A stretch of 64,000 bases of DNA from Streptomyces seoulensis. Lineage in GTDB: Bacteria > Actinomycetota > Actinomycetes > Streptomycetales > Streptomycetaceae. Below the pieces are notes generated by a model. The model was not told the origin of the DNA. It saw only the letters and a program-made list of their open reading frames with translations, and did no database searches. Made by a program: the position numbers and the translations under genes. The stretch covers positions 4,030,001 through 4,094,000 of the forward strand of contig NZ_CP032229.1 in NCBI RefSeq assembly GCF_004328625.1, read 5' to 3'. Below, piece by piece: positions 30,894-32,502 of the stretch (positions are counted from its first letter, which is position 1; the number at the start of each line of letters is the position of its first letter).

Positions 30894-31088
30894 GTGGCAC
30901 TCTCGATTTCGGCGGTGGTGCTGCTGGCGATCATCGTCTTCCTGCTGATCAAGAAGTCGGGACTGAAGGGGGGACACGCCGCCATCTGCATGCTCCTCGG
31001 CTTCTATCTCGCCTCCTCGACCATCGCACCCACGATCAGCGAGCTGACCACGAACGTCGCCAGCATGATCGGCAGCATCAAGTTCTGA
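30894..31088 (+). CDS. Small integral membrane protein, 64 aa
   Basis: GTG 30894 with GGAGG at 30880-30884 opens a 64-codon gene with two hydrophobic segments (ISAVVLLAIIVFLLI, 5-19; AAICMLLGFYLASSTIA, about 29-45) and a Ser/Thr-rich tail ending IGSIKF. Codon bias is that of a real gene. From memory, short proteins with a GFYLAS-type motif recur in Streptomyces, but I know no assigned function. It is monocistronic, between the peptidase (divergent) and the Rho paralogue (convergent, 44 bp away). Confidence 0.8.
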   Translation: MALSISAVVLLAIIVFLLIKKSGLKGGHAAICMLLGFYLASSTIAPTISELTTNVASMIGSIKF

Positions 31089-31132: not shown

Positions 31133-32254
31133 TCAGCTCGTCGGCAGCGTGGGCTGGACGCGGCGCAGGAACGTGGCGTTGTCCGGGGTCTCGCGCAGTC
31201 GTCCCAGCAGGGTCTCCAGGGACGCGTCCCCGTGTGCGCGCAGGGCGCGGCGCAGGCCCCTGGTGATGGCCAACTCTTCTCGGGTGAAGAGGAGTTCCTC
31301 GCGGCGGGTGCCGGTGCGGTCGATGTCCACGGGCGGGAAGACGCGGCGGGACGCCAGTTCGCGGTCCAGCCGGAGTTCCATGTTGCCGGTGCTCTTCAGC
31401 TCCTCGAAGAAGAAGCCGTCGGCGCGGGAGCCGGTGTCCACGAGCGCGGTCGCGAGGATCGTCAGCGAGCCGCCCTCCTCCGCCTGCCGTGCGGCGCCGA
31501 AGAACCGCTTGGGGCCCAGCAGCGCGCCCGCGTCCACGCCTCCGCTGAGGGTACGGCCGCCCGCCGCCGAGGCGTTGTTGTGCGCGCGGCAGAGGCGGGT
31601 CAGCGAGTCCAGCAGGATCACCACGTCCTCCCCGGCCTCCACCTGCCGCTTGGCCCGCTCCACGACGAGGTCCGCGAGCGCGATGTGGTCCTTGGCGGGG
31701 CGGTCGAAGGTGGAGGCGTACACCTCGCCGCGTACCGACCTGCGCATGTCGGTGACTTCCTCCGGGCGTTCGTCCAGCAGCAGCACCATCAGGCGGCACT
31801 CGGGGTGGTTGCCCGCGACGGCCGCGGCGAGCTGCTGGATGAGTACGGTCTTGCCGCTCTTCGGCGGCGCGACGATGAGGCCCCGCTGTCCCTTGCCCAC
31901 GGGGGCGAGCAGGTCGGTCAGGCGGCCGGCCAGGCCGGAGGCGGGGTGCTCCAGGCGCATCCGCCGGTGGGGGTGGAGGGGGGTCAGGTCGCGGAAGTTC
32001 CTCCGCTGCCCTGCGGGGGCGTCGGCACTGGTCACCTCCGTGAGGGCCCGCTGGGGTCCGGCGACGCCCTCCACGAGGTCGCCCTTGCGGAGGCCGTGGC
32101 GCCGGATCAGCGACGCCGGGACCTGCGGGTCTCCCGGGGCGGGCAGGAGGCTCGCGGCGGCCCGCAGGTGGCCCTTGCCGTGCGCGTCGATGTCGAGGAC
32201 GCCGGTGAGGGTGGTGTTCTGGGTTCTGATCGGGCGTTCGAGGGTGGTGGTCAT
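31133..32254 (-). CDS. rho: Rho-family transcription termination factor, short paralogue
   Basis: A 373-residue RecA-fold hexameric helicase homologue. All motor motifs are present: Walker A APPKSGKT (129-136), MVLLLDERPEEVTDM, VVILLDSLTRL (Walker B), the GGVDAGALLGPKRFFGAAR R-loop region and TGNMELRLDRELASRRVFP. It lacks the long Arg-rich N-terminal extension of the usual actinobacterial Rho and starts at the RNA-binding OB fold. There the aromatic residues that hold RNA in E. coli Rho (F62, F64, Y80) align with K27, H29 and Q44. It is therefore probably a paralogue with altered RNA recognition rather than the housekeeping factor. ATG 32254 is close to an AAAGGA-like site. It is monocistronic with a leader of about 210 nt. 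Confidence 0.88.
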   Translation of the reverse strand: MTTTLERPIRTQNTTLTGVLDIDAHGKGHLRAAASLLPAPGDPQVPASLIRRHGLRKGDLVEGVAGPQRALTEVTSADAPAGQRRNFRDLTPLHPHRRMRLEHPASGLAGRLTDLLAPVGKGQRGLIVAPPKSGKTVLIQQLAAAVAGNHPECRLMVLLLDERPEEVTDMRRSVRGEVYASTFDRPAKDHIALADLVVERAKRQVEAGEDVVILLDSLTRLCRAHNNASAAGGRTLSGGVDAGALLGPKRFFGAARQAEEGGSLTILATALVDTGSRADGFFFEELKSTGNMELRLDRELASRRVFPPVDIDRTGTRREELLFTREELAITRGLRRALRAHGDASLETLLGRLRETPDNATFLRRVQPTLPTS

Positions 32255-32360
32255 GATGGGGTGTGTCCTTTCCGGACAGGTTCAGGAAGGGCCGCAGATC
32301 ACGAAGACGCCTGCCTCCGGGCGACGGAAACGCACCACTGACGGAGCGAGAAAGCCCTGG

Positions 32361-32405
32361 TCACGGGGTGCTGAAGCGAAGAAGCCCGGCCTGGTCGAAG
32401 ACCAT
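32361..32405 (-). CDS. Possible leader peptide upstream of the Rho paralogue
   Basis: Between the candidate promoter and the Rho start lies a 14-codon frame (ATG 32405 to TGA 32361) encoding MVFDQAGLLRFSTP, with 12 of 14 third positions G or C. No Shine-Dalgarno is visible, so translation is uncertain. E. coli rho also has a translated leader frame (rhoL), which makes the position suggestive. Confidence 0.25.
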   Translation of the reverse strand: MVFDQAGLLRFSTP

Positions 32406-32474
32406 CGGCACGAGGGCTGAGAGAGAAGTGCGACACCGGCGCCGGACATGGGGCGCGGGCATGCCGCTCATTGC

Positions 32475-32502
32475 ACTGTACCGGGGTGGAGGGTCACGTC
32501 AA
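32475..32502 (-). promoter_or_regulatory. Candidate sigma-70-type promoter of the Rho paralogue
   Basis: On the minus strand TTGACG (32502-32497), a 16-bp spacer and TACAGT (32480-32475) form a good principal-sigma promoter. Transcription would start near 32468, giving a leader of roughly 210 nt before ATG 32254. The remaining stretch 32255-32474 holds no other gene than the possible leader peptide. Confidence 0.55.

What the first reader, a model, noticed from the sequence alone, without database searches (positions are those of the whole stretch)
31133..32254. Short Rho paralogue with a rewritten primary RNA-binding site
The motor domain is intact, but the OB-fold aromatics that bind RNA in E. 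coli Rho (F62, F64, Y80) align with K27, H29 and Q44, and the Arg-rich extension typical of actinobacterial Rho is missing. It may be a second termination/helicase factor with different RNA preference, or a modifier of the main Rho hexamer. Residue alignment is by eye; the E. coli residues are from memory.
Basis: partly seen in the sequence, partly recalled or inferred. Interest (0 to 1): 0.7.

Follow-up and report, generated by a model that had tools for sequence, protein, structure and literature searches.

The report
Short Rho paralogue in Streptomyces
This soil bacterium carries, besides its normal transcription-stopping motor protein Rho, a second shorter Rho that has lost the usual RNA-gripping site and carries changes near the pocket where a natural Rho-blocking antibiotic binds; such spare Rhos are common in Streptomyces and had been noticed before, but no test of what they do was found here.

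Summary
Observation confirmed. Window 31133-32254, MINUS strand, encodes a 373-aa Rho. The genome also has a canonical 691-aa Rho. At least 160 of 295 Streptomyces genomes have two Rho hits. The gene is under purifying selection. Catalytic residues are kept, but the motor is not untouched: Y274H, P279A, S281G, V284T, F335L, G337S. Other mutations at Y80, Y274 and P279 make E. coli Rho termination-defective (PMC1950744). A change at one of five presumed bicyclomycin-site positions occurs in 157 of 176 actinobacterial paralogues against 2 of 69 canonical Rhos; one young duplicate gained G337S plus L320M, the latter the M. tuberculosis resistance residue. Reading: a conditional, possibly bicyclomycin-insensitive Rho-family ring motor with non-canonical RNA loading; partner and target unknown. 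An S. lividans duplicate with RNA-site and drug-site changes was reported in 2013 (seen only as cited in PMC8269248): a new member of a known kind.

The parts
31133..32254 (-). short Rho paralogue, 373 aa, ATG start, stop at 31133-31135
31997..32215 (-). OB fold (about residues 14-86), Rho_RNA_bind hit at residues 17-69; primary RNA site rewritten: K27 (32174-32176), H29 (32168-32170), Q44 (32123-32125); loop round E. coli Y110 shortened
   Evidence: model blocks of residues 11-80 at pLDDT 62-85
31136..31996 (-). ring ATPase motor (about residues 87-373); Walker A K135/T136, catalytic E162, R163, Walker B D216, R-loop T274-R277, Arg finger R317 kept (roles recalled from Rho structures)
31544..31570 (-). 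Q-loop (residues 229-237) with P279A, S281G, V284T (E. coli numbers)
31391..31393 (-). S288 = E. coli G337; Ser in 120 of 137 of the short clade, Gly in 69 of 69 canonical Rhos
32475..32502 (-). promoter-like TTGACG-16-TACAGT (9 of 12 matches); a TAnnGT element recurs at this place in many relatives
32255..32468 (-). inferred untranslated leader with blocks conserved in Streptomyces: 5' hairpin about 32430-32467, second stem about 32332-32371, Shine-Dalgarno hairpin GTCC..GGAC 32265-32277

Best explanation
It is a diverged, single-gene Rho paralogue: an ATP-driven ring translocase on RNA (hexamer and activity inferred from homology) that has lost the N-terminal helical domain, the Arg-rich extension and the aromatic pocket of the OB fold, and has a remodelled Q-loop and G337 region. 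Most likely it does not load on C-rich rut RNA by itself. It is a conditional accessory motor that keeps working, alone or as subunits mixed into canonical Rho rings, when canonical Rho is blocked by bicyclomycin-like inhibitors made by neighbouring actinomycetes, or that acts on special transcripts handed to it by another factor. Shown here: gene, paralogy, purifying selection, residue changes, the same kind of change in at least one independent young duplicate, conserved upstream blocks. Inferred: hexamer, drug insensitivity, altered loading, conditional expression. Not shown: any activity.
For: Homology to Rho over nearly the whole length; canonical Rho elsewhere in the genome. K184, E211, R212, D265, S266, R269, T323, K336 and R366 invariant in 176 of 176 paralogues. 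dN/dS (NG86) for the whole gene 0.13-0.21 in 5 of 5 pairs; OB fold 0.16-0.41, motor 0.07-0.17. Among 127 motor positions invariant in canonical Rhos only five are changed in more than half of both paralogue groups: Q220, K224, A280, S281, G337. A change at 337, 210, 219, 320 or 208 in 157 of 176 paralogues against 2 of 69 canonical, both L320M. L250 is 85% identical to its own genome's canonical Rho L263 (joined with support 0.99), keeps Y80, Y274 and P279, but has Y62Q, L320M and G337S: an independent duplication in which this region changed early. The Leu-to-Met change at 320 is the MtbRho resistance determinant (PMC8828861, abstract and passages). PMC8269248 reports from D'Heygere 2013 that an S. 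lividans duplicate has bicyclomycin- and RNA-site mutations (passages). Position in chromosome arms in 45 of 57 hand-picked rows, though not in the window's own genome, fits an accessory gene.
Against: E. coli Y80C and P279S are severely termination-defective and not rescued in any condition tested (PMC1950744), so a stand-alone spare terminator is doubtful; the residues here are others (Q, A), so their effect is not known. 19 of 176 paralogues, 17 of them in the short clade, have no change at the five positions. L208, D210, E211, R212, S266, L320, T323 and K336 are kept in the window protein, so insensitivity would rest on S337 and Q-loop changes alone. The five positions were chosen after seeing G337 stand out and from recalled E. 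coli resistance sites; only L320M is backed by a text I saw, and three searches found no open text on G337S. Counts are of related, unevenly sampled sequences, not of independent events. No cyclodipeptide-synthase hit in the own genome (its control was silent). Expression is unknown.
Confidence: 0.42

Rival explanations
1. Regulatory subunit: the short protein co-assembles with canonical Rho and weakens or redirects termination (natural dominant-negative or antiterminator).
For: Catalytic residues that act across the subunit interface (R212, R366; roles recalled) are kept while loading and Q-loop positions linked to RNA release are altered; no N-terminal extension of its own.
Against: Only 57% identity to the own canonical Rho, so mixed rings are uncertain; motor catalysis would not need such strict conservation in a poison subunit.
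Confidence: 0.25
2. Dedicated terminator or RNA:DNA helicase with new RNA specificity, recruited by a partner rather than by the primary site.
For: OB-fold residues fixed in the close family: G26, L30, R31, D42 in 100 of 100 and K27 in 99 of 100; purifying selection on the OB fold.
Against: The OB fold evolves faster than the motor; no gene cluster was shared next to the paralogue across all the clades compared; the carboxypeptidase-like neighbour of other Streptomyces is missing in the window, L064 and L065.
Confidence: 0.25
3. Decaying duplicate without function.
For: Patchy presence; copies with an in-frame stop in G137 and G442.
Against: 160 of 295 Streptomyces genomes have two Rho hits; dN/dS well below 1; invariant catalytic residues.
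Confidence: 0.04

Closest known systems
Canonical Rho (TIGR00767), here that of the same genome
   Same: OB fold plus ring motor; Walker A/B, catalytic Glu, R-loop, Arg finger residues; 57% identity to the own canonical Rho
   Different: no Rho_N, no Arg-rich segment, primary-site aromatics lost, Q-loop and G337 changed; score 451 against cut-off 509
NCBIfam NF041509 paralog_Rho2, 'Rho, short form'
   Same: a model for short Rho paralogues; of ten proteins scanned, one, from family f4 of the same class (L255), passes its cut-off (686 against 628)
   Different: the window protein scores 448.8 and is not a member; it lies in another clade
S. lividans rho duplicate of D'Heygere et al. 2013
   Same: reported mutations in the bicyclomycin and RNA-binding domains (PMC8269248 passage)
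   Different: paper not held and not read, sequence not compared; that it is the same family is an inference

Membership tests
Rho superfamily (any Rho) | near full-length similarity with OB fold and RecA-type ring ATPase | tested here: met
   PF07497 and PF00006 over cut-off; PRK09376 443.5 against 315; PDB Rho chains down to E 3.8e-110
Canonical Rho equivalog TIGR00767 | score over curated cut-off 509.45 | tested here: not met
   451.3 bits
Canonical Rho equivalog TIGR00767 | primary-site aromatics at 62, 64, 80 | tested here: not met
   K27, H29, Q44; 69 of 69 canonical have aromatics at all three
Canonical Rho equivalog TIGR00767 | N-terminal helical domain Rho_N | tested here: not met
   no hit in P0002, hit in L001
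Canonical Rho equivalog TIGR00767 | catalytic residues K184, E211, R212, D265, R366 | tested here: met
   all kept
Canonical Rho equivalog TIGR00767 | RNA-dependent ATPase and transcript release | not testable with these tools
   needs protein
NF041509 paralog_Rho2 short form | score over curated cut-off 628 | tested here: not met
   448.8 bits
Bicyclomycin-resistant Rho | Met at E. coli position 320 as in MtbRho | tested here: not met
   L271 in the window protein; Met in L250
Bicyclomycin-resistant Rho | measured insensitivity to the drug | not testable with these tools
   needs protein or strain

The most novel reading that the evidence does not exclude
Rho has been duplicated more than once in Actinomycetes, and the spare copies converge on the bicyclomycin region (S337 in most, D210G in six that keep G337, once L320M with S337) before losing the rut-binding site: Rho inhibitors would be a widespread selective force, answered by inducible, drug-insensitive Rho subunits behind a structured leader, some of which then became a new class of rut-independent Rho motors.
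Probability: 0.22. Interest if true: 0.75.

Novelty: new member of a known kind. Interest (0 to 1): 0.45.

Why it matters
[quoted passage not shown] A widespread second Rho that keeps the motor but drops the rut-binding aromatics and alters residues near the drug site makes two questions directly testable: how far a Rho ring can work without the primary site, which E. coli genetics calls mandatory for RNA release (PMC1950744), and whether natural Rho inhibitors shaped Rho evolution. It also warns that 'transcription termination factor Rho' in Streptomyces annotation can name a protein that is not the housekeeping terminator.

Tried and rejected
Housekeeping Rho: rejected, the canonical gene is elsewhere. 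Pseudogene: rejected by dN/dS and invariance. Phage origin: no PHROG hit at E 0.001. Operon partner: in 58 of 81 loci analysed (80 named loci plus the window) a carboxypeptidase-like gene follows (gap under 300 nt in 53 of the 55 where both frames were called), but not in the window, L064 or L065, and no neighbour cluster spans the clades of the 37 further loci. Bicyclomycin cluster in the own genome: no cyclodipeptide-synthase hit, but the control was silent, so absence is not shown. Known RNA family for the leader: nothing at gathering score in the window stretch or in L103, L066, L119, L130. Rut-like leader: -80 to -20 is C-rich and G-poor on average in 100 loci (99th percentile of 60-mers of the window) but not in the window itself (63rd), so not claimed. 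The window leader folds no better than shuffles (z 0.18). AlphaFold model weak (mean pLDDT 60.6); only its OB strands were used, no fold search was run. Rooting on E. coli is unreliable (one deep node has support 0.06), so the parsimony counts are not used; only the L250/L263 pair (support 0.99) is taken as an independent duplication. The table had 12 of 31 canonical sequences mis-extracted and 11 short ones skipped (reverse-strand loci); canonical counts come. Searches counted the window gene twice (as WIN and L002) and five canonical sequences with identical cores; one search recounts without them (176 and 69 instead of 177 and 74). L251 and L258 were put with the paralogues although they branch next to the canonical clade.

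Full report
CHECK. The frame at 31133-32254 is on the minus strand and encodes 373 aa. It scores 451 bits on the Rho equivalog model (cut-off 509), 443 on PRK09376 (cut-off 315), and matches 11 distinct PDB Rho sequences from residue 5 or 17 to 359-372. E. coli F62, F64 and Y80 align with K27, H29 and Q44 (1PV4 is named as E. coli Rho in PMC8828861). The window lies at C1:4030001-4094000 of a 6.43-Mb genome that also has a canonical Rho at C1:4263042-4264895 (open frame 737, from ATG 691 aa), just after a frame that looks like homoserine kinase, thrB (named by eye). The closest database protein is 97% identical, from Streptomyces seoulensis, already named 'transcription termination factor Rho'.

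DOMAINS. Canonical Rho of this genome: Rho_N, Arg/Asp-rich segment, OB fold, motor. Short Rho: OB fold and motor only. The OB-fold hit is truncated (profile 2-53 of 73) and the loop round E. coli Y110 is shortened.

DISTRIBUTION. Of 295 Streptomyces genomes, 160 have two Rho hits at E <= 1e-30, 133 one and 2 none (hand-copied and counted; only six candidates per genome were scored, so a lower bound; a few second hits, such as those of G047, G105 and G184, are more diverged copies). In the family search (200 genomes) all 35 of genus g7 have two hits, other genera vary (hand count). In the class search (296 genomes) 10 of 27 genomes of family f17 have two (hand count; second copies located). Among 57 hand-picked rows with a usable position, 45 lie in the outer 15% of the chromosome; the window copy lies at 0.37 from the nearer end (rounded genome sizes, not all rows used).

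WHAT CHANGED. 251 Rho frames were aligned and grouped by tree; after removing identical cores: canonical 69 (E. coli and the 7oqh chain included), short clade 137 (window included), other paralogues 39. Canonical: aromatic at 62, 64 and 80 in 69 of 69. Short clade: K at 62 in 122, no Tyr at 80 in any. Other paralogues are intermediate: F64 kept in 17 and Y80 in 8 of 39. Of 127 motor positions invariant in canonical, five changed in more than half of both paralogue groups: Q220, K224, A280, S281, G337; of 13 such OB positions, two: F64 and Y80. K184, E211, R212, D265, S266, R269, T323, K336 and R366 are invariant in 176 of 176 paralogues. In the window protein Y274 is H, P279 A, S281 G, V284 T, F335 L and G337 S. 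E. coli Y80C, Y274D, P279S and P279L are termination-defective; [quoted passage not shown]

DRUG REGION. G337 is Ser in 120 of 137 and 30 of 39 paralogues, in 0 of 69 canonical. Six paralogues have D210G, all with G337. 157 of 176 have at least one change among positions 337, 210, 219, 320 and 208, 19 have none; among canonical only 7oqh and L262 (L320M). These positions were picked after G337 had stood out and from recalled E. coli resistance sites, and the sequences are related, so the contrast is suggestive, not a test. L250 is 85% identical to its genome's canonical Rho and carries Y62Q, L320M and G337S with Y80, F64, Y274 and P279 intact. Met at position 320 confers bicyclomycin resistance on MtbRho; [quoted passage not shown] That G337S and D210G are E. 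coli resistance mutations is my recollection; searches found no open text. The window protein keeps the other presumed pocket residues tested, so drug insensitivity is an inference.

SELECTION. dN/dS against five relatives: whole gene 0.13-0.21; OB fold 0.16-0.41, motor 0.07-0.17. The OB fold is constrained, but less than the motor.

LEADER. Upstream of the start, 93 of 100 loci share GAAAGGAC at -16, and blocks at about -100, -140 and -200 recur in roughly 40-70 of 100; several of these words are absent from the window. A TAnnGT element precedes a hairpin with paired changes (C-G to T-A in 4, C-G to G-C in 3 of 47 sequences; counts of sequences, not events). A GTCC..GGAC stem enclosing the Shine-Dalgarno core is kept in 47 of 47 with a single one-sided change, so it gives no covariation evidence; the same pattern occurs at three other places in the genome. 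RNAalifold's covariation term is near zero and the window leader alone folds no better than shuffles. A regulated leader is plausible, its signal unknown.

LITERATURE. PMC8269248 (passages) cites D'Heygere et al. 2013: Actinobacteria often have additional rho duplicates, and one in S. [quoted passage not shown] I could not read that paper. In the listings of four searches no title or abstract start treats the function of such a duplicate; of the listed papers I read passages of PMC5930311, PMC8828861, PMC8269248, PMC1950744 and PMC4499133 only, and most subscription papers are not held. NCBIfam already has a 'Rho, short form' model, which L255 passes and the window protein does not.

VERDICT. 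Real, conserved, not the housekeeping Rho; a member of a known kind for which I found no functional work. The Q-loop and G337 changes and the young L250 duplicate are the most informative additions.

Noticed in passing
window 32255-32502 (-): Promoter-like element and inferred leader of about 210 nt with blocks and a 5' hairpin conserved upstream of short rho in other Streptomyces; no Rfam family at gathering score.
   Followed up: partly
L064-L143, downstream of short rho: 58 of 81 loci have a gene that looks by eye like a D-Ala-D-Ala carboxypeptidase on the same strand downstream; not in the window, L064 or L065.
   Followed up: partly
L250:3981-5117 (-) and L263: Young duplicate of canonical Rho with L320M and G337S beside an unchanged canonical copy in the same genome.
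   Followed up: partly
G441:C1:103147-104247 and 8869728-8870828 of 8973977: Two equally scoring extra Rho copies on opposite strands near both chromosome ends, perhaps in terminal inverted repeats.
   Followed up: no
L224, L231, L245: Other Streptomycetaceae paralogues appear to keep a Rho_N-like stretch but no Arg-rich segment (by eye): an intermediate domain make-up.
   Followed up: no
window 30894-31088 (+): 64-aa hydrophobic small ORF convergent with short rho, shared with L064 and L065 (S. bauhiniae, S. griseoluteus).
   Followed up: no
L253, L254, L256, L257, L259: In family f17 a 192-196 aa gene lies directly upstream on the same strand in four loci, and a 206-aa relative three genes upstream in L259; not identified.
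   Followed up: no
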